DNA from: a virus
IMG/VR virus record: IMGVR_UViG_3300031741_000018
Coordinates: 1 to 26,144 of that record
DNA length: 26,144 bases
Strand: one strand, 5' to 3'
Shown here: piece by piece, positions 5,277-24,365 of the stretch
Layout: every line of letters begins with the position of its first letter
Position numbering within the stretch: the stretch's first letter is position 1
The notes under the pieces: generated by a model
What the model saw: only the letters and a program-made list of their open reading frames with translations
Told to the model about the DNA's origin: nothing
Database searches by the model: none
Translations under genes and position numbers: made by a program

Positions 5277-5359
5277 TGGCAGAAGGTAGACGAATCGAAC
5301 GCCCATGTTTCCATGCCCACGGTATTCGACACCGCTTAGCCCCTTGGCTAGTACCTTCT
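5277..5359 (-). tRNA. tRNA-Ser(CGA)
   Basis: Read on the minus strand, the 83-nt element has a 7-bp acceptor stem (agaaggt with accttct), discriminator G and encoded CCA. The D stem is tagc/gcta. The anticodon stem is gcggt/accgt with loop gtcgaat, giving anticodon CGA. A variable arm with an atg-gaaa-cat hairpin marks a class II tRNA. The T loop is ttcgatt on a G-U-containing stem. Long variable arm, G73 and CGA agree on serine, reading UCG codons. It lies in the late transcript between the Lys-rich peptide gene and the 79-aa gene. The variable arm is short for a tRNA-Ser. Confidence 0.9.
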
Positions 5360-5968: not shown

Positions 5969-5982
5969 CTATTAGTAACTTT

Positions 5983-6036
5983 GTATATTCTCGGGGTGTA
6001 GTAGGCTCAACACCTCGCTATGCCCCGAGAATATAC
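5983..6036. promoter_or_regulatory. 14-bp perfect inverted repeat between late genes
   Basis: gtatattctcgggg (5983-5996) and ccccgagaatatac (6023-6036) form a perfect 14-bp stem with a 26-nt loop, between the 141-aa gene and the endolysin. The minus-strand transcript continues with aaagttac rather than a U-tract. Candidate factor-assisted terminator, RNase III cleavage site or mRNA-stabilising structure. Confidence 0.65.
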
Positions 6037-6041
6037 AACTG

Positions 6042-6590: not shown

Positions 6591-7407
6591 TTATGCTACA
6601 TACTTTTTAACCACTACATTAACCATAGCGGTATCTAGAACTACAGCACGTCCGTAGACGAAGAGTGTTCTCCAATACTCACCAAAACTGTCGGGTATTT
6701 TTAAGGTATCAACCTTATCAACCTGAGATGCGAAGGTCGCGGCCTCTTTGGTACCAGCCTGTACATACCATGCGGTATCAGAATCACCATCAGTAGCGGT
6801 GAAGAGGTTATTGGACTGGTAAATCACTGTCCGATCTACCATACCTACGAGACCATTACGGATAACACCCGTAGTATCACCGGTGATATCAGCAGCCTTC
6901 AGGTCACCCTTCTTGAGTAGTGCGCAGTACCATGCAGGTAAGACGATGTAACGTCCCTCTGATGGGATATCTGCTTCATCAAGTACCTGGTTGATATCAA
7001 CGATCAAGTCGATAGCACCTGCGTAACCTGTACCAGTCTCAGTGGCTATAGATACAGTAGTTCCAGTACCAGCCAGTACACCGAGATTAATATTAGAGGA
7101 GAGTGCACCAGCAGTAGCTCCTTTGTTAGTAGCGTTTGCCTTAGTGCTCATGTACTCAAAAACTTCCTTGTCAACTGTAATAGCGATGCGGAGTGCAGCA
7201 TCCTTAGCAAACATATTAACCAGCTCAATATCTGCCTGAGCCTTATTAATATCATCCACCTGGAAAGCTGAGTAGACACCTTGGTCGATGAGTAACTCAG
7301 TTGCATCCTTAGTGGGTACTTGATAATTTAATGTATCACCAATAGTGTAGGATGATACGGTGATCTCAGGTGTTTTACGGATATGCACCTTAGCGCCTTG
7401 GCCTTTG
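6591..7407 (-). CDS. Major capsid protein, exon 3 (bulk of the protein)
   Basis: This is the main part of the coat protein that builds the icosahedral shell. The apparent 265-aa ORF starting at GTG 7388 is not the true gene. Coding continues upstream as KGQGAKV (7407-7389) and is joined through two introns to exon 2 (8307-8363) and exon 1 (8502-8629). The spliced length is 1002 nt, or 333 residues. Joined sequence around the junctions reads VLRNFYENTFYHDV, DYEGEIKGQGAKVHIRKT. KVHIRKTPEITVSSYTIGDT and YEVPT-like NYQVPTKDATELLID are typical of a widespread P22-coat-like (HK97-fold) phage capsid family, as is the ending AVVLDTAMVNVVVKKYVA. It follows the scaffold gene as expected. Splicing is inferred from frame continuity and intron core motifs. 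Confidence 0.88.
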
Positions 7408-8306
7408 CAAAGTCTTATGACTTCGGACTATCACTTGCCTTATAGGCTTCCTTTGTTTAGTCTCTGCGGGTAGTGTGGAATGCTATCATCTGTTCTATTG
7501 CCGCTACCTTTTTAGGTATCAAAGCATACTTCCTGAGTTGCTTTAAGAATCTCAGGGCCTTAGTCCTTGAGTTCCTACCTAGTGATAACTGCCAGAACCT
7601 ACATCCATCCTTACGGGTCCCTATCGACCCTCCGTGGATACGGTGTAGATGATTCAAGATAAATGCATCGTAGTCTGCTGAACCAACGAACAGCTTTAGC
7701 TCATTAGTTATAGCCGTACTACCATTACTGTAAGTTCTCTTCCTACCAATACGTACCCTATAGTGACCGTCACCATCAAAGTATCCCGCCATCCAAGCCC
7801 ATGCTAAGTGCTTAGGCTCCTTTCTCCATCGGGAGTTCAGACGAGAGCATCTTATATACTCAGTGAGATCATCCTTAGATGCTACACTCCACCCCTTCAG
7901 CTCACTTAAGAGCCAGAGGATATTATCAGAGTGGGTTGCTTTGATCCTCAGGTGCTTCCCGATTCTCCCTAGGAGAATATGAGATTCCTTATTATTCAAA
8001 GTCCATCTGTCAGCATATACAGTCCCTAGTCTATAGGCTTTGCAAAGCTGGTGCAGTATAGTTGTATCAGTCTGGCATATAGCCATCTGCAAGTAGCTAC
8101 TGTATCTCCCGTTAGAGTTCTTCTTGAAGTGTATTCCGATATATCCATCGGAATCAAGGAGACCAGCAGTATACTTATTCAGTTGTTCAGAGTGCTTACG
8201 AAGTGTATCTATCTTCTTGCTTAGCATTTCTTCTCCTCATAGTGAGTGAATGACTTTCCCTCGGATTTTACCCCGTTATTTAAAAGGAATTAAGAGACCT
8301 TATATA
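7408..8306 (-). ncRNA. Group I intron 2 of the capsid gene, with endonuclease ORF
   Basis: An 899-nt intron between exon 2 and exon 3. At the 5' site gagat ends in U and pairs with gtctc just inside the intron, giving the conserved U-G pair in P1. The intron ends in G before caaaggcc. Core elements in order are P3 5' strand ttccttt, aacggggtaa (P4/P5), a cactcactatgagg hairpin (P6), the ORF, acccgcagagacta (P4 3' and P7 5'), aaaggaa (P3 3'), a gcct-ata-aggc hairpin (P8), gatagtcc (P7 3') and an aagtc-ataa-gactt hairpin (P9). gagacta with gatagtcc is the classic group I P7 signature. Confidence 0.88.
7457..8227 (-). CDS. Intron-encoded LAGLIDADG homing endonuclease
   Basis: A 256-residue monomeric homing endonuclease with two LAGLIDADG motifs, TAGLLDSDGYI (residues 20-30) and MAGYFDGDGHY (146-156), each with the acidic residues needed for metal binding. 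It would cut intronless capsid alleles and spread the intron. The SD gaggag lies five bases before ATG 8227, inside the intron next to the P6 hairpin. The last residues (HTTRRD) and stop are written in the intron core: acccgcagagactaa is both coding and the P4/P7 strand. So the ORF end is constrained by RNA folding. It is on the same strand as the capsid gene and looks intact. Confidence 0.93.
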   Translation of the reverse strand: MLSKKIDTLRKHSEQLNKYTAGLLDSDGYIGIHFKKNSNGRYSSYLQMAICQTDTTILHQLCKAYRLGTVYADRWTLNNKESHILLGRIGKHLRIKATHSDNILWLLSELKGWSVASKDDLTEYIRCSRLNSRWRKEPKHLAWAWMAGYFDGDGHYRVRIGRKRTYSNGSTAITNELKLFVGSADYDAFILNHLHRIHGGSIGTRKDGCRFWQLSLGRNSRTKALRFLKQLRKYALIPKKVAAIEQMIAFHTTRRD

Positions 8307-8363
8307 ATCTCGCCTTCATAATCGGTGTTCATTACATCATGATAAAACGTGTTTTCATAGAAG
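8307..8363 (-). CDS. Major capsid protein, exon 2 (57-nt micro-exon)
   Basis: Only 57 nt, encoding most of FYENTFYHDVMNTDYEGEI, which fills exactly the gap between the N-terminal exon and KGQGAKVHIRKT. The following base pattern gagat|t fits a 5' splice site. The 3' boundary of intron 1, gtgatg|cttc, has the required terminal G. The reading frame is kept across both junctions (57 = 3 x 19). Confidence 0.85.
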
Positions 8364-8501
8364 CATCACGGACTATCGCATAGCTTGTAGCTTCCTCTCG
8401 CTTAGTCTCTGCGGGTGGCGAGCACCTCATAGTGAGTGCGTTACCTTCCCTCGGATATTACCCCGTTATTCAGAGAGGATTTTATTAGGAACTTCTAGTT
8501 C
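8364..8501 (-). ncRNA. Group I intron 1 of the capsid gene (~138 nt, no ORF)
   Basis: The same core as intron 2 in miniature. P1 is ttaggaa with ttcctaa. The exon start cttct can pair with agaag (P10). P3 is tcctctc with gagagga. Then come aacggggtaa (P4/P5), a gcac-tca-cta-tga-ggtgc hairpin (P6), acccgcagagacta (P4 3' and P7 5'), an agct-aca-agct hairpin (P8) and gatagtcc (P7 3'). The splice position is the least certain part. Frame continuity favours aggaa|gaac, but that puts A, not U, at the 5' site; aggaagaa|ctag is the other in-frame choice. Confidence 0.8.
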
Positions 8502-8629
8502 TTCCTAAGGACCTTCTTGCTGTAGAGTTCCGGTACGTACTTAGTACTATCATAGTAAGAACTCTTAATAGTACCGGAAGTCGTGGCGGTATTGTCATAT
8601 GCTGTATTTGTACTTGGACGAAGTGCCAT
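8502..8629 (-). CDS. Major capsid protein, exon 1 (N-terminus)
   Basis: Starts at ATG 8629 with a weak SD-like aggtaatt upstream, 12 bases after the scaffold stop. It encodes MALRPSTNTAYDNTATTSGT then IKSSYYDSTKYVPELYSKKV and LR(N), the standard beginning of this coat family. Read without splicing it would stop after 44 residues at a TAG in intron 1, so the unspliced ORF is a dead end. Confidence 0.87.
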
Positions 8630-8641
8630 AATAATTACCTA

Positions 8642-9610
8642 TTATTGTATGCCTCCCTCAACCATAGCTGCGGCATCTATACGGGCCTCTATCTCGAGTG
8701 CTTCCGTATGTCTACCTTTATATCTACCACGGTTCAGGTCATCATAAAATTTATCAATGAATGCCCGTGAGATCACGTCGATCTTTCCGGGCTGCTTAGC
8801 TTGGGTAGCTCCTGCACCATCACCGACAGGAGTGACCTTACTGGCCAGCTTGTCTTTAAGTACAGGCTTGTTCGTTATGAACTCGCTCATGTACCTGATG
8901 ATCTGTGCAGCGTTACCCTGAGTCTCTGCAGCAGTGAAGTAGGTCTTACGAGGTGTCCCATCTACGTCTGGTCCACTTAGAAATGTAGCGAACTCTGGAT
9001 CGTAATTGATCTTCTCCCAATCAGGAACAGCCTTAGCAACACGGGATATGAAGATGTTATATGCTTGTTGTCTATTATCCGCGGCTCGGTTATTACTATC
9101 AGCCTCACGGGCAGCTCTCTCCCTCTCCAGTTGTTCCTGGAGTGGCTTAGTAGCTGCCTCTGTGGCCTTAGCAGTCACCTTACGCATGGCATTAATAGTC
9201 GCCTCACCTAGTGCATCTGTATCCTCAGCAGTGAAGACACCATCTAAGGGGTCTACTGCGGGTTGTGCTGTTCTCAAACTAGCCACTTGAGTATGGAGAT
9301 CCCGAATAGTTGTAAGCGCGTCCGTCAACTCCCTCTTGGCTCGGTAAAGTTTCTCATCTCTACTCGACCGGAGGTTAGTGAAACGTAGCTTCCAATCCTC
9401 AGTATCTTTCTCAGGCTCAACCTTATCGTCCGGTGCAGAATCAGTAGGTGAGGTGACCGCCTCGTCCACCTGATCGTGTGCTTCCTCTGCTATAGGTTGT
9501 TCCTCGGTGGCTCCCTCAGGCTTGGTCTCGCCTTCCGGAGGTGCACCCATCATCAGTTTCTCTAGTTCCTCTTCCTGCATCTTCAATGACTCAATTGTAT
9601 CTTGTATCAT
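8642..9610 (-). CDS. Capsid scaffolding protein
   Basis: A 322-residue, highly charged, mostly helical protein between portal and coat. Residues 20-75 are acidic and low-complexity (Glu/Asp/Pro/Thr). Residues 75-190 form a long coiled coil (WKLRFTNLRSSRDEKLYRAK onward). The C-terminal third holds YNIFISRVAKAVPDWEKINY and a short Arg-rich end, FYDDLNRGRYKGRHTEAL, suited to binding the coat shell. Scaffold proteins guide coat assembly and then leave the procapsid. The SD aaaggat precedes ATG 9610. The assignment comes from composition and position, as scaffold sequences diverge quickly. Confidence 0.8.
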   Translation of the reverse strand: MIQDTIESLKMQEEELEKLMMGAPPEGETKPEGATEEQPIAEEAHDQVDEAVTSPTDSAPDDKVEPEKDTEDWKLRFTNLRSSRDEKLYRAKRELTDALTTIRDLHTQVASLRTAQPAVDPLDGVFTAEDTDALGEATINAMRKVTAKATEAATKPLQEQLERERAAREADSNNRAADNRQQAYNIFISRVAKAVPDWEKINYDPEFATFLSGPDVDGTPRKTYFTAAETQGNAAQIIRYMSEFITNKPVLKDKLASKVTPVGDGAGATQAKQPGKIDVISRAFIDKFYDDLNRGRYKGRHTEALEIEARIDAAAMVEGGIQ

Positions 9611-9630
9611 GTTATCCTTTCGGTATAAGG

Positions 9631-9645
9631 GTGTCTACGGAGACA
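9631..9645. repeat. Dispersed palindrome copy with one mismatch
   Basis: gtgtctacggagaca lies just after the stop of the 64-aa gene and before the scaffold gene; a replaces c at the centre. Confidence 0.8.
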
Positions 9646-9646
9646 G

Positions 9647-9841
9647 TTATACCTTTAGTTTAGTTAGTAAGCTATCGGCTAAGAAGGAGATTCCCTGGAG
9701 GAATGCTAAGTTAGCCGTGCTAGTCTTCTTTAAATCCTCTACTATCTTAAGATCTTGCTCCTCAAGGAGTCTGATTAGAGTGTCCTTGTCTCCACCTCTC
9801 AGGCGTTTAAGATCCTCTCTACTTAAGTTCAATCTATACAT
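9647..9841 (-). CDS. Small helical protein between portal and scaffold
   Basis: A 64-residue, charged, helical protein (MYRLNLSREDLKRLRGGDKD then a Leu-rich helix ending LLTKLKV) of unknown function. I prefer ATG 9841, since ggag in the dispersed palindrome lies seven bases upstream and can act as its SD. An ATG at 9859, which would translate the palindrome as MSPET, has ggag directly abutting it. Its place between portal and scaffold suggests a head-assembly role, with no further support. Confidence 0.65.
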   Translation of the reverse strand: MYRLNLSREDLKRLRGGDKDTLIRLLEEQDLKIVEDLKKTSTANLAFLQGISFLADSLLTKLKV

Positions 9842-9843
9842 TA

Positions 9844-9858
9844 GTGTCTCCGGAGACA
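9844..9858. repeat. Dispersed palindrome copy that supplies a ribosome-binding site
   Basis: gtgtctccggagaca sits exactly upstream of ATG 9841; its ggag half is the only good SD for that gene. If the palindrome folds in mRNA, the SD would be in the stem. Confidence 0.85.
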
Positions 9859-9867
9859 TCTCCGTTA

Positions 9868-12102
9868 TTAAACGTTATTAGCACGGTCTCCAGTTTGGAG
9901 ACTCAGTGCAATGGCTTGATTGGCTCGGTGCTCATCACTCTGGATCTTCTTCTCAGTTTCAGCTAACTTGCCGGTAGCCTTCATGGCCTCCGTCTCCTTA
10001 ACCTGCTCTAGCTCCATAGACTTTAACTCAACATCGGCTTGATCCTTCATCTTCTTCCTCTTGAGATCTGCGACTGCAATCTGGTCCCGCTGCTCGGCGA
10101 TCTTAAGGATTGTCTCGTTCTGGATCCTAGCTGCCTCTACATTATCACTCGGTGCTCTCTCTTGTTGTGTCTTAGCCTTCTCTCGTGCCTTCAGCTCTTG
10201 ACGATTAGGCACTATGTTCTCACCTAACCCTAAGTCATCCGCCATCACCCTTAATATCTCTGCCCTACCTTCTGCACCCATGATCTCTTGATCGACAGGA
10301 TTTGCTGTAACCTGGAGGAACTCATTGCGCCTCATCTGCTGTGCACCAGCCATCGTGAGACTTGCAGAGCCCCTCGCTATGACGTTGATGTCTCCGGTGA
10401 ACTGGTGATCTCCTTTCAACATCGTGGTGTAGAACTCCATCTCTACCCTCGGTATGATGATGCCCTCATCGAGGTGCCTGATAGCATCCTTGATGCCCTT
10501 ACTGGCTGACTCCAGGAGCATGGACAACCCAGACGCGGTCTGAGCTGCACCTGCCGTCTTCTCATTACCATAGGCATACCTCGGTATCATAGTCACATCA
10601 TCCGCTTTTACCTCAAACTCCTTATACACCGTTAGTAATTCTTGTGCATTACTGGGTATTGAGAAGAAGGAGACGGCTCTCTGCGAGTTGCCATAAGGAT
10701 CACTCTTAGTCTGTATGATATCACGGGGTACAAGCTGCTGTACCTCTTGTCCGTCAGCTAGTCTCTCAACTACGACCTCCATAATAGGACCTGAGGATAG
10801 ACCCATATTATTACTTAGTGCTCTTGCGCATGCATTACACATCTTCTGTATGTCCCGCATGAGGAATGGTGGTGCCGTACCCCAGATGGAGCCTGGCCTC
10901 TTCTGGTAACTTGCCGAATAGTATGGTCTACGCCCAAGCGGATCATCATTAAGTACACACTTGATGACCTCTGTCCCGATTAGGATAGCCTCTATATCTA
11001 CCTCGTCTTCCTCACCTAATCCTAGGAGTGCAGGATCCTCCAATCCCCACTCATTGAGCATCTTGGCTGGGGCTGTCCCGAAGAAGTGGAGCCCATGGAA
11101 TACATTCTCATTAGCACGGTGTGTATCCTCCCTCAGCTCCTCTCTAGCCTTCTCATCCTCTATGTTCGTATCCATCCCAGCAGGGTAACCCTTACCCTCA
11201 TCCCGTTCGAGTACCTTCTTCAACGCTTCCTCTTTGTACTTTGGTGTACCTAAGAGAGATGCCACCTCCTTCCTACTCATACGTAGGTGCTCCAGGAAGT
11301 TACCATCATTAACTGTGGTGGCCTCCGGAGAGGGGTAGATGTCAAGAGACGAGATGCTCTTATTCATCAGTACATAATCCTCTGCTGCTACGACTTCCCC
11401 TTTGACCCACTTAAGCCTCTTACGCTTAGTGATTATGGGCCCCTTCATGAATGCTGTTGGGAATATACAGAAGTGGTCTATAGTATCACTAAGTGCCCTC
11501 TCCCATTTCCCCTCTTTCATCTGGTCCTTAATCTGGTTCTCAATGATATCAAATGCGAACTTAGCTTCCTTGTTAATCTCCTCAGTTATAGCGGCGTATA
11601 AGTCCCTCTTCGTCTCATTAATCTCCTTGATAGTCTCGGCGATAGGCTTACGTTCCTTATCCCTTACCATCTCACTGAACTCTTTAGTCACCTGCTTCTC
11701 AATGCCCTTCTGTACCTTAAGGGGCAGGTCAACTACCGGAGTTACCTCGATACTATAGGCATCCTCTTTACTAGCTAATAGGATATCCTTAATCCAGGAG
11801 ATAGCTGCCCGTACCTTAGTGCTAGTGAGGTTCATGAAGATAGCTGAGCCACCCTCCTCCCTGATCTTCTGTATATCTTCCGGGTCGTACTGACCGTTAT
11901 AGGCTCTTAGGCTATCCAGCATCAGCTTGTTCACACCACCCGATTCCCTTGCGTCCCTGTTCTCCTGGAACGCATGGACTATGTGATTACGTAAGGAGTC
12001 TATACCTGGCTCATCAGCAGCTATTACGGCACTATCAAGTCCCCTCACGTGTTCAGCAACCATATCATCTATAGAGACTACCTTGACACCTATGCCTTCC
12101 AT
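9868..12102 (-). CDS. Portal protein
   Basis: A 744-residue portal subunit; twelve copies form the ring at one capsid vertex that serves as DNA channel and motor dock. The N-terminal 300 residues are helical with RAAISWIKDILLASKEDAYS (about 97-116). The core has RRPYYSASYQKRPGSIWGTA (about 393-412), where portals of this type carry a conserved PYY or P-x-G-S-x-x-G motif. GNEKTAGAAQTASGLSMLLE then SASKGIKDAI (about 555-585) is the clip/stem-wing region. The last 100 residues are a charged coiled coil, a feature of long podoviral portals. It follows the terminase genes directly. Its start overlaps the stop of the 26-aa ORF (taatg). Confidence 0.92.
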   Translation of the reverse strand: MEGIGVKVVSIDDMVAEHVRGLDSAVIAADEPGIDSLRNHIVHAFQENRDARESGGVNKLMLDSLRAYNGQYDPEDIQKIREEGGSAIFMNLTSTKVRAAISWIKDILLASKEDAYSIEVTPVVDLPLKVQKGIEKQVTKEFSEMVRDKERKPIAETIKEINETKRDLYAAITEEINKEAKFAFDIIENQIKDQMKEGKWERALSDTIDHFCIFPTAFMKGPIITKRKRLKWVKGEVVAAEDYVLMNKSISSLDIYPSPEATTVNDGNFLEHLRMSRKEVASLLGTPKYKEEALKKVLERDEGKGYPAGMDTNIEDEKAREELREDTHRANENVFHGLHFFGTAPAKMLNEWGLEDPALLGLGEEDEVDIEAILIGTEVIKCVLNDDPLGRRPYYSASYQKRPGSIWGTAPPFLMRDIQKMCNACARALSNNMGLSSGPIMEVVVERLADGQEVQQLVPRDIIQTKSDPYGNSQRAVSFFSIPSNAQELLTVYKEFEVKADDVTMIPRYAYGNEKTAGAAQTASGLSMLLESASKGIKDAIRHLDEGIIIPRVEMEFYTTMLKGDHQFTGDINVIARGSASLTMAGAQQMRRNEFLQVTANPVDQEIMGAEGRAEILRVMADDLGLGENIVPNRQELKAREKAKTQQERAPSDNVEAARIQNETILKIAEQRDQIAVADLKRKKMKDQADVELKSMELEQVKETEAMKATGKLAETEKKIQSDEHRANQAIALSLQTGDRANNV

Positions 12103-12182
12103 TAACAGACCTCCCAGTCTTCAGCAAGAGCATCACTGCTACTCTTCAACTCTCTAATCGCTTCTCCAAATGTTATACTCAT
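12102..12182 (-). CDS. 26-aa leader ORF before the portal gene
   Basis: MSITFGEAIRELKSSSDALA then EDWEVC, with SD aggag seven bases upstream of ATG 12182. The stop overlaps the portal start as taatg, a classic coupling arrangement. FGEAIxxLK followed about ten residues later by W resembles the start of DUF2829 (Tad2-like anti-Thoeris) proteins, but the frame ends there. It may be a truncated relic kept as a translational leader, or a chance likeness. Confidence 0.55.
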   Translation of the reverse strand: MSITFGEAIRELKSSSDALAEDWEVC

Positions 12183-12216
12183 CCGTCTCTCCTACGTCCT
12201 GTGGCAGAGACGGATG
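12180..12216 (-). promoter_or_regulatory. Hairpin covering the leader ORF start
   Basis: catccgtctc (12180-12189) and gagacggatg (12207-12216) are perfect 10-bp reverse complements. In the minus-strand mRNA the 3' arm contains the ATG of the 26-aa ORF, and its SD lies at the loop edge. This could set portal translation relative to terminase. Confidence 0.6.
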
Positions 12217-12252
12217 AACTCGTCCGGCAAGCCATTATTTATATACAAAGTG

Positions 12253-14389: not shown

Positions 14390-14498
14390 TTAATATCCTA
14401 TTAGTAATAATATCTTTATATATTCAGTATTCCTATGGTTAGAACCTAGTATTCCTTAGATATTTCTGGAATCCCTTCCGTCATGTTGTCCTATAGTA

Positions 14499-14527
14499 TA
14501 TATAGCACCTCAGTGACGTTTTGTCAA
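14499..14527 (-). promoter_or_regulatory. Late-module promoter, sigma70-like
   Basis: On the minus strand: perfect -35 TTGACA (14527-14522), 17-bp spacer, -10 TATATA (14504-14499). Transcription would start near 14492 and run through the terminase genes into the late block. It is the best promoter match in the window. Confidence 0.7.
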
Positions 14528-14704
14528 CCCCTCATTACTAATGTTTCTCGTATTCCTACTGATCCCCGGGGTTTACCTGCTAATATCAAGTGTTCAGGGC
14601 GTAAACTAGCCGTGTGTGGATTGGTTAGTTGGTACTGGAGGTATTCTATAGGATTATGCTCTAGGAGCCACGGGGGCTACCACCCGCTATCCGCGGTACC
14701 GTTC

Positions 14705-14747
14705 GCCTGTTTTAGGGGGGTGGGGCCCGAAAGGCCCGGGGGCAGGC
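14705..14747. other. GC-rich nested hairpin in the divergent region
   Basis: Outer gcctg/caggc (14705-14709, 14743-14747) encloses inner gggcc-cgaaa-ggccc (14723-14737) plus G- and C-runs. It lacks a T-tract on either side. It may separate the leftward promoter from the RNA region to the right, or belong to the structured RNA. Confidence 0.55.
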
Positions 14748-14790
14748 CCTTCGTCTCCCCATAACCCCAAGACCCTTCCATCCCTCCTGG

Positions 14791-15530
14791 CTCCGGAGAC
14801 ACCAATCACCTATCAGAGAGTAATACTATGAGAGGAGTTCGGCTCTACTCGTTACCACACTGGAACACTTTGACAATAGCATAGGACGACGGACTGGGAA
14901 GCAAGCCAACCGAGTAAGGTTAGAACGGGACTGCAAGGGCCTAGGAAGCGAGTTGAACCTCAGGGGATGGAGAGGATACGGGGACTTCAGGTAAAAAAGC
15001 GGAAACGGGAACCATACCAGAGTGAACCAAGCAAGGTCAGGATCTGGATAGCGGACAGGTTAAGTAGTTGGTGAGTATCTCTCGAGCACGAAGTCAAACT
15101 TACAATATGGTCGGCAAAGATTCTCCGACTGAAAACAAATGGTGTTATCAGCTTAGCAAGCTAGGAAATCCCGAATCTCAAGGGCCTGATATGGGGCGCT
15201 AGGAATACTAAATACACATATAGTGCTGGACTAACTACCAGTGCAAGAAGACCGGATAATAATGTCCGGCAAGTATCATACACATCCAAAGTCAGCAGGT
15301 CTATTGATGTACCAAGGGTAAGTTCACGGAATGATAGCCGTCCCTGATTGCATCCTTAGGATCAAGTATAATGAGTAAATAGAGAAAAGGTTGCTAGTAG
15401 TAATGAACCTGAGTATCGAGAGTGCTATGCTCTATAAAGAATACGAAGTCCTGACAGGCAAGGTGTCTCCATAGGCACCAGAGAGTTTAGGTCCTTGTTA
15501 GTTATGGCGGACATAAAACCAGCTAGTCAC
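14791..15530 (+). ncRNA. Candidate large structured noncoding RNA
   Basis: About 740 nt with no plausible ORF, SD or codon pattern, but dense in local stems. Examples are ccaga/tctgg around 15028-15056, gtcgg/ccgac (15110-15129), tatcag/ctgata (15146-15191) enclosing agctt-agc-aagct, ggcgcta/tagtgct near 15195-15230, ccgga/tccgg near 15254-15272, acgg/ccgt near 15330 and agag/ctct near 15419. The ggcgcta/tagtgct stem needs two G-U pairs that exist only in plus-strand RNA, which sets the orientation. Size, GA-rich loops and a phage setting recall GOLLD and ROOL RNAs. I cannot confirm membership; it could also be a replication or packaging control region. Boundaries are approximate and no promoter is clear. 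Confidence 0.5.
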
Positions 15531-15549
15531 AGGTGGTCTCTCAATTGTA

Positions 15550-15594
15550 TAACTGTTAGATGTAAGTCTACATCATGCTTACATCTAGCGGTTA
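15550..15594 (+). promoter_or_regulatory. 17-bp hairpin upstream of the ring-nuclease gene
   Basis: taactgttagatgtaag (15550-15566) pairs over all 17 positions with cttacatctagcggtta (15578-15594) in plus-strand RNA, using two U-G wobbles; the loop is 11 nt. Wobbles instead of mismatches argue for selection on RNA. It ends 38 nt before the start codon and has no U-tract. Confidence 0.65.
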
Positions 15595-15632
15595 TGTAGT
15601 TGATGTATGAATATTAACAAGTAGGTGTCTTA

Positions 15633-16106
15633 ATGAGGTATTTATCTGATACATTCAGTCTGGAGATGCTAGATGTTTCTCAGCTCCGTAACGTAACAGT
15701 GCGCCCTATATCAGCAAGTACTATTGCTTACATTATGGGTAGGCGTGAGGTCCATAGCTGTATTGGTCATGCGCATACAGCAGCCACTTTGTCTGCTCTA
15801 CTAGGTAAAGAGGTGGTAACTAATCATTGCAGTATATCACTGTATCCAGGAGATACACTATATGTTGCGTCTACATTACCTGATGGTATGGCAATCCAGT
15901 TCCTTATTATTGAGGTGGTTCAGCATCTAGTTCCTTACATAGGTCCTGATTATGATAAGGGCTCCATATATGGTGCAATACGCACTAGGGGAGAATTACT
16001 GGCCGATGAGTTCTGCGGTACCTGTGCAGATATGCAGGATAAATATGGTAACTTTTGTGTCCAAATTATCTCCAGTGATTTCCGTGCTACTCTTTGCGAT
16101 AACTAG
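15633..16106 (+). CDS. acrIII-1: AcrIII-1-like viral ring nuclease (DUF1874)
   Basis: Residues 1-97 match the DUF1874 pattern. The start is MRYLSDTFSLEML, followed by SCIGHAHTAATLSALLGKEV, NHCSISLYPGDTLYVA, TLPDG and IQFLIIEVV. In characterised AcrIII-1 proteins this fold is a dimer that degrades cyclic tetra-adenylate and so shuts down type III CRISPR signalling. His46, in IGH, lies where the catalytic histidine (His47 of SIRV1 gp29) is found. The Asn-Arg often seen before the second strand is Asn-His here. A 55-residue C-terminal extension with three Cys (FCGTCADM, NFCVQ) is not part of the core family. It is the first rightward gene, fitting early expression. SD is weak (aggtg). Confidence 0.82.
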   Translation: MRYLSDTFSLEMLDVSQLRNVTVRPISASTIAYIMGRREVHSCIGHAHTAATLSALLGKEVVTNHCSISLYPGDTLYVASTLPDGMAIQFLIIEVVQHLVPYIGPDYDKGSIYGAIRTRGELLADEFCGTCADMQDKYGNFCVQIISSDFRATLCDN

Positions 16107-17483: not shown

Positions 17484-17619
17484 TTGTGACTGTGAGGAGT
17501 GTAGAGAATGGAGAGAAGATCATGTTTATGGTATCTTTGAGGGTACGGAGGATAGGCGGGATGATTACATCGCAGCTACGGAGATACAACCAAGCGATCT
17601 ACCAGTATTTGAAAGATAA
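17470..17619 (+). CDS. Small acidic Cys-rich protein (49 aa)
   Basis: MKKHNCDCEECREWREDHVY onward, with ggagg seven bases before ATG 17470. Cys6, Cys8 and Cys11 could bind a metal, but a fourth ligand is not obvious. The C-terminal half is acidic (EGTEDRRDDYIAATE). It overlaps the end of the 77-aa gene in another frame. A longer frame from 17386 lacks an SD and would overlap more, so it is not preferred. Confidence 0.65.
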   Translation: MKKHNCDCEECREWREDHVYGIFEGTEDRRDDYIAATEIQPSDLPVFER

Positions 17620-17727
17620 TCCTATATCTACAAGTGCGGAGATACGTGTGGCTACAAGTTACTATATAGTATTATCAGCTTAACGAACTCCAAGGCCATT
17701 AGGAAGATTAAGGTCTCCATAAGGTAC

Positions 17728-17733
17728 TATAAT
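17728..17733 (+). promoter_or_regulatory. Possible -10 element
   Basis: A perfect TATAAT in the 134-bp gap before the next small gene; no convincing -35 at 16-18 bp. It may be a weak or activator-dependent promoter. The rest of the gap shows nothing else. Confidence 0.25.
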
Positions 17734-17753
17734 ACAAATGATTCTTGAGGTAA

Positions 17754-17870
17754 ATGATGGTGGGATGGATAACAGCAAAGATAACAGGCACTACGCTAAT
17801 ACTGCAATGTAAGCCTGTGCCGATACTTAGTGCCAGACAGCCCTATAAGGTGGTGTATGGAATACCTTAA
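17754..17870 (+). CDS. Possible small protein (38 aa)
   Basis: Begins MMVGWITAKITGTTLILQCK and ends VVYGIP, with gagg close to ATG 17754. It overlaps the next small ORF by 14 bases, the same overlap as the 17250/17470 pair, which supports it. Beta-prone sequence, function unknown. Confidence 0.4.
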   Translation: MMVGWITAKITGTTLILQCKPVPILSARQPYKVVYGIP

Positions 17871-17970
17871 AACGTGTATTCAAATGGGAATATTGATGAT
17901 AGTAGTGGTATACCCAGTGGTATACGTAATCGCTAGGCTACTAAGAGGTGTCTCCGGAGACACTAGGTAG
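17857..17970 (+). CDS. Small single-pass membrane protein (37 aa)
   Basis: MEYLKTCIQMGILMIVVVYP then VVYVIARLL forms one hydrophobic span flanked by Lys and Arg. An aaggtgg sequence precedes ATG 17857. The C-terminal VSGDTR is encoded by a perfect palindrome copy. Small membrane peptides in phage early regions often act on host membranes or defences, but nothing here specifies a role. Confidence 0.5.
   Translation: MEYLKTCIQMGILMIVVVYPVVYVIARLLRGVSGDTR
17948..17963. repeat. Dispersed palindrome copy at a small-gene terminus
   Basis: gtgtctccggagacac, perfect over 16 bp, forms the last coding bases of the 37-aa ORF. Confidence 0.92.
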
Positions 17971-18013
17971 TTGTGCTAATAGGTAGCTTAGTAATCATAA
18001 AGTGGAGGTTAGT

Positions 18014-18172
18014 ATGACCAAGGAAGCTGTAGTATCAACACCTACAGTACTTAACGACAAGAGGGTTTGTCAGTACTGCAGGCACCAGGAGAATAACCCG
18101 TCCAGATGTCATCTCAGGCAATATTACGTAGGACGCAAAGATACCTGTAGTAACTTTGGTATCAAGAGATGA
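18014..18172 (+). CDS. Small zinc-finger-like protein (52 aa)
   Basis: Strong SD ggagg five bases before ATG 18014. Residues 19-46 carry VCQYCRHQENN, RCHLRQ and DTCSNF, giving Cys19, Cys22, Cys32 and Cys45, a plausible zinc site of the kind found in small phage regulators. Function unknown. This gene fills a stretch that could be mistaken for noncoding. Confidence 0.65.
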   Translation: MTKEAVVSTPTVLNDKRVCQYCRHQENNPSRCHLRQYYVGRKDTCSNFGIKR

Positions 18173-18225
18173 GAGCTGCGGGGTAAGTCCTCAGGAGATC
18201 TAAAAAGAGAAATAAGAGGTAATAA

Positions 18226-24012: not shown

Positions 24013-24365
24013 GATGTATAACCGTTAGATTCAAGGAGTCAGCAGATACCAATGGCCCTGTATACTATAGGGGCCATCGGTATCCTGCGATAGTACAGAG
24101 GGATGGGTCATGGGACGTCGTAACTGCAACAGGTGAGGGGGATATAGTGCTTCCTCTCCATCAGAAGGATTTCGATATAGTGTCTCCGGAGACACCAGGA
24201 GAGGGAGTCTTCACATACATCTTCCGGTGTAAGGGGGTATGCGATGGTGAGAGCTGCACACTTATAACTGAGCACAGTACCCGTATAGCTATGCAACCGC
24301 CAACCCGGTGTCCATACAGTAATGATGAGAAAATGTCATGGACTACGGAGAGAGTGGGAGGCTAA
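24009..24365 (+). CDS. Small protein with SH3-like fold signs (118 aa)
   Basis: Starts at GTG 24009, overlapping the upstream stop as gtga, with gggggag just before. Residues 1-60 (RCITVRFKESADTNGPVYYR onward) look like a small beta barrel. The second half has four Cys (FRCKGVCDGESC, PTRCPYS), possibly a metal site. Residues 57-61 (VSPET) are a perfect palindrome copy read in a different frame from the VSGDT copies. Confidence 0.7.
   Translation: MRCITVRFKESADTNGPVYYRGHRYPAIVQRDGSWDVVTATGEGDIVLPLHQKDFDIVSPETPGEGVFTYIFRCKGVCDGESCTLITEHSTRIAMQPPTRCPYSNDEKMSWTTERVGG
24180..24195. repeat. Dispersed palindrome copy inside the 118-aa gene
   Basis: gtgtctccggagacac, perfect over 16 bp, translated as VSPET and followed by a Pro-Gly-Glu-Gly linker. 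Confidence 0.92.

What the first reader, a model, noticed from the sequence alone, without database searches (positions are those of the whole stretch)
14791..15530. Candidate giant structured RNA between the divergent modules
About 740 nt of gene-free sequence has many short stems in series, some stabilised by G-U pairs only on the plus strand, and GA-rich internal loops. Phages carry ornate large RNAs (GOLLD, ROOL) of similar size, some of which assemble into multimers. This could be one of them or a new class.
Basis: partly seen in the sequence, partly recalled or inferred. Interest (0 to 1): 0.8.

Follow-up and report, generated by a model that had tools for sequence, protein, structure and literature searches.

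The report
Gene-free phage leader ending in hairpin
Between the two oppositely read gene blocks of an unnamed phage lies a gene-free stretch that relatives keep in the same place; it is probably a long untranslated RNA leader ending in a strong hairpin, but nothing shows that it is a giant folded RNA of the GOLLD or ROOL kind.

Summary
The gene-free stretch is real: 14390-15632 is the largest gap in the window, between leftward packaging genes and rightward genes, with no ORF of 50 aa or more in 14765-15632. The "many stems" are not more than chance. The 740-nt body folds no better than shuffles on either strand (z +0.4 and +0.2). The only exceptional structure lies just outside the given interval: a 27-bp hairpin at 15541-15603, z -7.4 on the plus strand, whose six non-Watson-Crick pairs are all G-U on that strand. 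A long hairpin with unrelated arms sits at the same place, about 15-33 nt before the first rightward gene, in three relatives. A virus with a 70% identical portal protein keeps a gene-free gap with colinear sequence islands. A conserved sigma-70-like promoter fires leftward only. The apparent 9-bp closing helix comes from degenerate copies of a dispersed palindrome. No Rfam family matches, and covariation could not be tested (43% identity, two sequences). Best reading: a long untranslated leader or noncoding RNA of the rightward operon, ended by an RNase III-type hairpin. GOLLD/ROOL membership is not supported. A distinct large RNA class is possible: two relatives fold modestly better than chance (z about -2).

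The parts
14390..15632 (.). Gene-free gap between leftward late genes (small terminase-like, large terminase, portal) and rightward genes
   Evidence: No ORF of 50 aa or more in 14765-15632; largest gap in the window; TerL and portal by PHROGs
14499..14532 (-). Sigma-70-like promoter reading leftward, TTGACA-17-TATATA, starting the terminase/portal operon
   Evidence: Scan; same -35/17/-10 arrangement in L002 (TTGACA-17-TATAAC), L003 (TTGACG-17-TATAGA) and Rhizobium phage TM3_14A (TTGACA-17-TATATT)
14664..14794 (.). GC-rich block closed by an imperfect inverted repeat (14664-14676 / 14782-14794), holding the island GGGGCTACC at 14673; role unknown (boundary hairpin, possible packaging site)
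   Evidence: Inverted repeat; island shared with L002 and L003; folds like shuffles, z -0.2 on plus, -0.8 on minus
14791..14805 (.). Degenerate copy of the dispersed palindrome GTGTCTCCGGAGACAC at the start of the purine-rich stretch; L002 has an exact copy of its own form at the matching place
   Evidence: Sequence; family of copies
14791..15540 (+). Purine-rich noncoding body (candidate leader or ncRNA) with islands GCAAGCCAACC (14901-14911) and CGCTAGGAAT (15197-15206) shared with L002
   Evidence: chain score for the element alone 42 against shuffle mean 24, 4 of 200 as high; folding z +0.4
15463..15480 (.). Second degenerate palindrome copy, GGTGTCTCCATAGGCACC; complementary to 14796-14804, which makes an apparent closing helix
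   Evidence: Sequence; L002 has an exact GTCTCTAGAGAC at a similar place (6792-6803)
15541..15603 (+). 27-bp RNA hairpin (21 Watson-Crick and 6 G-U pairs on plus) directly upstream of the first rightward gene; candidate RNase III processing site
   Evidence: z -7.42 plus, -3.77 minus; hairpins with unrelated arms at the same place in L002, L010 and Rhizobium phage TM3_14A
15633..16106 (+). First rightward gene, 157 aa, PHROG 5063, weakly STIV B116-like
   Evidence: E 4.3e-12; PF08960, 23.3 bits, below the cut-off of 26

Best explanation
The stretch is the long untranslated 5' part of the rightward transcript. Transcription starts in or beside the GC-rich block (about 14650-14800), perhaps under control of a protein that binds the palindrome GTGTCTCCGGAGACAC, and runs through about 750-850 noncoding nucleotides. 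The 27-bp hairpin at 15541-15603 is then cut, most likely by host RNase III. The cut gives the early mRNA a clean 5' end next to its ribosome-binding site and releases the upstream RNA as a separate noncoding RNA of 600-800 nt. Shown here: the absence of genes, the shared place in relatives, the sequence islands, the hairpin and its retention with different arms. Inferred: the transcription start, the regulator, the RNase III cut, the release and any function of the freed RNA.
For: No coding capacity. The whole gap is colinear with the gap of L002: chain score 91 against shuffle mean 40 and maximum 65, 0 of 200 as high. The hairpin is exceptional on the plus strand (z -7.42), and equivalents lie just before the first rightward gene in L002 (z -4.80), L010 (-6.87) and Rhizobium phage TM3_14A (-4.98), with no U-tract, so it is not an intrinsic terminator. 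Plus-strand purine bias fits rightward transcription. Relatives' bodies fold modestly better than shuffles, more so on plus than minus: L002 z -2.19 / -0.87, Rhizobium phage z -2.07 / -0.97. An 800-nt abundant ncRNA from a 1-kb ORF-less space is known in phage ICP1 (PMC7567579).
Against: No rightward sigma-70-like promoter was found in the gap of the window, L002, L010 or the Rhizobium phage; only the leftward one is recognisable and conserved. The window's own body shows no folding excess. In L002 and L010 the terminal hairpin scores at least as well on the minus strand. No transcript data exist.
Confidence: 0.5

Rival explanations
1. The stretch is a large RNA with a defined, conserved fold, of a class not yet described, working in trans like GOLLD, ROOL or the ICP1 RNA; the hairpin is its 3' boundary.
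For: Size and gene-free context; equivalent bodies in L002 (z -2.19) and Rhizobium phage TM3_14A (-2.07 body, -2.89 full length) fold about as much better than shuffles as the ICP1 RNA (-2.6); islands shared with L002.
Against: The window's body has z +0.42, and its first 250 nt fold worse than shuffles (z +2.2). The apparent closing helix is made of copies of a dispersed DNA palindrome. The MAFFT/alifold consensus of window and L002 is not better than shuffled columns (z -0.9 on plus), though that alignment is poor. No Rfam match.
Confidence: 0.2
2. The stretch is a DNA control region (promoters, operators, perhaps the replication origin). It is gene-free because it works as DNA, and the RNA made from it has no fold of its own.
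For: Palindrome copies at both edges in the window and in L002, members of a family spread over the genome; conserved leftward promoter; cumulative GC-skew minimum at the gap; folding at chance level.
Against: No tandem repeats and no DnaA-box match in the gap; skew is explained by divergent transcription; a 750-nt spacer is longer than operators need; the terminal hairpin carries G-U pairs on one strand, a mark of RNA.
Confidence: 0.22
3. The GC-rich block beside the small terminase gene is the packaging start (cos or pac), and the whole gap is a packaging region.
For: The block lies upstream of the terminase genes; island GGGGCTACC shared by the window, L002 and L003; contigs of L003 and L012 end inside or just after such a GC-rich block.
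Against: L002 and L010 assemble straight through it; no overhang-like motif was tested; it does not explain the 750 nt to the right.
Confidence: 0.05
4. The stretch is a decayed or inserted gene remnant without function.
For: No sequence match in the phages collection; fast divergence compared with the flanking genes.
Against: The relative keeps a gene-free gap at the same place with colinear islands (0 of 200 shuffles); short translated stretches of the gap show no convincing protein similarity to the relatives' gaps.
Confidence: 0.03

Closest known systems
ICP1 ~800-nt abundant noncoding RNA between gp139 and gp140 (PMC7567579)
   Same: About 1 kb ORF-less phage gap, RNA of similar length, no tRNA nearby, no known family
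   Different: Detected by RNA-seq; its gap folds better than shuffles (z -2.6) and its sequence holds a hairpin followed by a T-run, terminator-like; the window's body shows neither
ROOL (RF03087) and GOLLD ornate RNAs (PMC12286853)
   Same: Size range and phage context
   Different: No covariance-model match; no tRNA island adjacent; no excess folding; covariation unproven
Phage K long noncoding RNAs lnc001/lnc002 (PMC9241854)
   Same: Long intergenic phage RNA candidates
   Different: Theirs lie beside tRNA genes and are abundantly transcribed
RNase III processing hairpins of T7-like early mRNAs (from general knowledge)
   Same: Long near-perfect intergenic hairpin directly upstream of an early gene, without a U-tract
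   Different: Here it ends an unusually long untranslated stretch; cleavage untested
Gap 17522-18201 of Rhizobium phage RHph_TM3_14A (MN988472)
   Same: Divergent modules, leftward TTGACA-17-TATATT promoter, GC-rich block, noncoding stretch, long hairpin just before the first rightward gene
   Different: No detectable sequence similarity; shorter (about 500 nt) and folds better (z -2.1 to -2.9)

Membership tests
ROOL (RF03087) | Match to the Rfam covariance model | tested here: not met
   No match at gathering score or at E<=10; also none in four related records, with the caveat that no control genome rang
ROOL (RF03087) | Usually near a tRNA island | tested here: not met
   Only one tRNA in the window, tRNA-Ser at 5277-5359, over 9 kb away
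GOLLD | Match to an Rfam covariance model | tested here: not met
   All 4227 families of release 15 scanned; only chance miRNA/snoRNA-type hits at E<=10. The separate one search used a wrong accession and is not counted
GOLLD | Covariation-supported secondary structure with a conserved 3' region | tested here: inconclusive
   One alignable relative at 43% identity; consensus energy z -0.9
GOLLD | Discrete abundant RNA, raised in the lytic phase, forming a multimer | not testable with these tools
   Needs RNA-seq, northern blot or cryo-EM
Large phage noncoding RNA in general (ICP1-like) | ORF-less phage gap of about 1 kb | tested here: met
Large phage noncoding RNA in general (ICP1-like) | Detected transcript of that length | not testable with these tools
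   No expression data held
Large phage noncoding RNA in general (ICP1-like) | Folding better than shuffled sequence (typical, not strictly defining) | tested here: not met
   Window z +0.42; ICP1 control z -2.6; relatives about -2
RNase III-type processing hairpin | Long, nearly perfect RNA duplex near an early gene, not followed by a U-tract | tested here: met
   15541-15603, 27 pairs, z -7.42; sequence after it UGUAUGAAUAUUAAC
RNase III-type processing hairpin | Cleavage by RNase III | not testable with these tools
   Needs in vitro cleavage or 5'-end mapping

The most novel reading that the evidence does not exclude
A group of uncultivated and Rhizobium phages carries, between its divergent modules, a fast-evolving 350-800 nt RNA that is cut from the early transcript at a conserved hairpin and works in trans; it would be a large phage RNA class unrelated to GOLLD and ROOL.
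Probability: 0.18. Interest if true: 0.7.

Novelty: new member of a known kind. Interest (0 to 1): 0.35.

Why it matters
Large noncoding RNAs of phages are few and their roles unknown. A gap that several phages keep gene-free at the same place, one of them cultivated on Rhizobium, would be a tractable place to look for another. If it is only a long leader with a processing hairpin, it is ordinary phage gene control, and the useful lesson is that reading stems by eye in a purine-rich gap gives chance-level structure.

Tried and rejected
Rfam scans of the gap and relatives: no usable hit in the gaps. Search of the gap DNA in the phages collection: none. Flanking proteins as single queries in IMG/VR: none. 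Portal alignment gave L002, L003, L006, L007 and others; terminase, CobT and small-terminase alignments gave only distant terminases or the same contigs; genome contigs gave one 24% match. Two-island DNA pattern: only L002 plus five records with no matching protein, taken as chance. L007's gap has visible repeats and no comparable element. MAFFT/RNAalifold on window and L002: alignment unreliable, known islands not aligned. One search used RF01998, which is a group II intron part, not GOLLD. Long-range helix 14796-14804 / 15463-15471 rejected as RNA evidence: both arms are copies of a dispersed palindrome. Origin of replication: no tandem repeats or DnaA boxes in the gap. Gaps of Roseobacter phage CRP-3 and of an E. 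coli phage-plasmid were looked at as analogues only.

Full report
What is there. The window is a fragment of an unnamed phage (a virus record of 26,144 bases). Leftward genes include a large terminase and a T7-type portal (head-tail adaptor); rightward genes include CobT-like, CobS-like and ligase proteins. Between them lies 14390-15632, 1243 nt, the largest gap in the window. It has no ORF of 50 aa or more from 14765 on, and stops are dense in all frames.

Is it structured beyond chance? Windows of 120 nt average z near 0 on both strands. The first 250 nt fold worse than shuffles (z +2.2). The exception is 15541-15603, just right of the interval: 27 pairs, 21 Watson-Crick and 6 G-U on plus, z -7.42 on plus and -3.77 on minus.

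Relatives. The portal protein led to L002, a 57.6-kb contig with 70% portal identity, whose gap is also gene-free. Nucleotide similarity in the gap is too weak for BLAST, but islands lie in the same order: TTTTGTCAACCCCT, GGGGCTACC, GCAAGCCAACC, CGCTAGGAAT. A chain of such islands scores 91 against a shuffle mean of 40 and maximum of 65 (0 of 200); for the element alone it is 42 against 24 (4 of 200). So the gap as a whole is homologous, and the body is probably so. L003 shares the left part and then ends. L010 (terminase 39%, small terminase 32%) has a shorter gap, and Rhizobium phage RHph_TM3_14A (portal 31.7%) has a gap at the same kind of boundary. These two have no significant sequence similarity to the window's gap; they are compared by position and layout only.

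Shared layout. (a) A leftward sigma-70-like promoter with 17-nt spacing in the window, L002, L003 and the Rhizobium phage. (b) A GC-rich block. (c) A noncoding stretch, purine-rich on the rightward strand most clearly in the window and L002. (d) A long hairpin about 15-33 nt before the first rightward gene, with unrelated arm sequences: z -7.4, -4.8, -6.9 and -5.0 in the window, L002, L010 and the Rhizobium phage. The pairing is kept while the sequence is not, which argues that the hairpin is needed. In L002 and L010 the reverse strand folds as well, so strand preference is clear only in the window and, less so, in the Rhizobium phage. A similar hairpin precedes the first gene of a divergent gap in an E. 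coli phage-plasmid, so such hairpins are not special to this group. None is followed by a U-tract.

A trap. The fold of the window joins 14796-14804 to 15463-15471 as a closing helix. Both arms are degenerate copies of GTGTCTCCGGAGACAC, a palindrome whose core is found eight times exactly in the window; L002's contig has 27 copies of the sister form GTCTCTAGAGAC. Two such copies always look complementary. I therefore do not count this helix as RNA structure; the copies more likely bind a regulator.

Is it a giant RNA? A calibration helps. The ORF-less ICP1 gap that yields an abundant ~800-nt RNA (PMC7567579) has z -2.6. The bodies of L002 and the Rhizobium phage reach -2.19 and -2.07, better on plus than minus. 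The window does not (+0.42), nor does L010 (+0.83). With one alignable full relative at 43% identity, covariation cannot be tested; the consensus fold was not better than column shuffles (z -0.9). No Rfam family matches in the gaps. The only tRNA in the window lies more than 9 kb away, whereas ROOL and GOLLD are often near tRNA islands (PMC12286853).

Conclusion. I read the stretch as a long untranslated leader of the rightward transcript, probably cut at the hairpin and so released as a noncoding RNA (0.5). The start of that transcript is not identified; no rightward sigma-70-like promoter was found. A DNA control region (0.22) and a large folded RNA of a new class (0.2) remain open. Membership of GOLLD or ROOL is not supported.

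Noticed in passing
window 6044, 6534, 9846, 14249, 17950, 18818, 22692, 24182 (variant 20413); L002 contig, 27 copies: Dispersed palindrome GTGTCTCCGGAGACAC (core GTCTCCGGAGAC); relatives carry GTCTCTAGAGAC instead. Both intergenic and inside genes; resembles a set of operator or stoperator sites. Binding protein unknown.
   Followed up: partly
window 14499-14532 (-): Conserved leftward sigma-70-like promoter for the terminase/portal operon.
   Followed up: yes
window 5981-6038, 12179-12217, 24045-24084: Further long hairpins, two of them between late genes; 5981-6038 has its G-U pairs on the plus strand although the neighbouring genes read leftward.
   Followed up: no
window 15633-16106: First rightward gene (157 aa) is weakly like STIV B116, a protein family named from an archaeal virus (PF08960, 23.3 bits, cut-off 26).
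   Followed up: no
L110:478-543 (Roseobacter phage CRP-212): Type II hammerhead ribozyme match, 38.4 bits, just above the gathering score.
   Followed up: no
L105:1791-1925 and L110:2501-2635: 135-nt noncoding stretch 71% identical between gene-free gaps of Roseobacter phages CRP-3 and CRP-212.
   Followed up: no
Rhizobium phage RHph_TM3_14A (MN988472) 17522-18201: Gene-free gap with a noncoding stretch that folds better than shuffles (z -2.1 to -2.9) in a cultivated phage; identical in three sister phages.
   Followed up: partly
L004 (IMGVR_UViG_3300031631_000342): A 4-kb viral contig is 100% identical to window 6638-10709.
   Followed up: no
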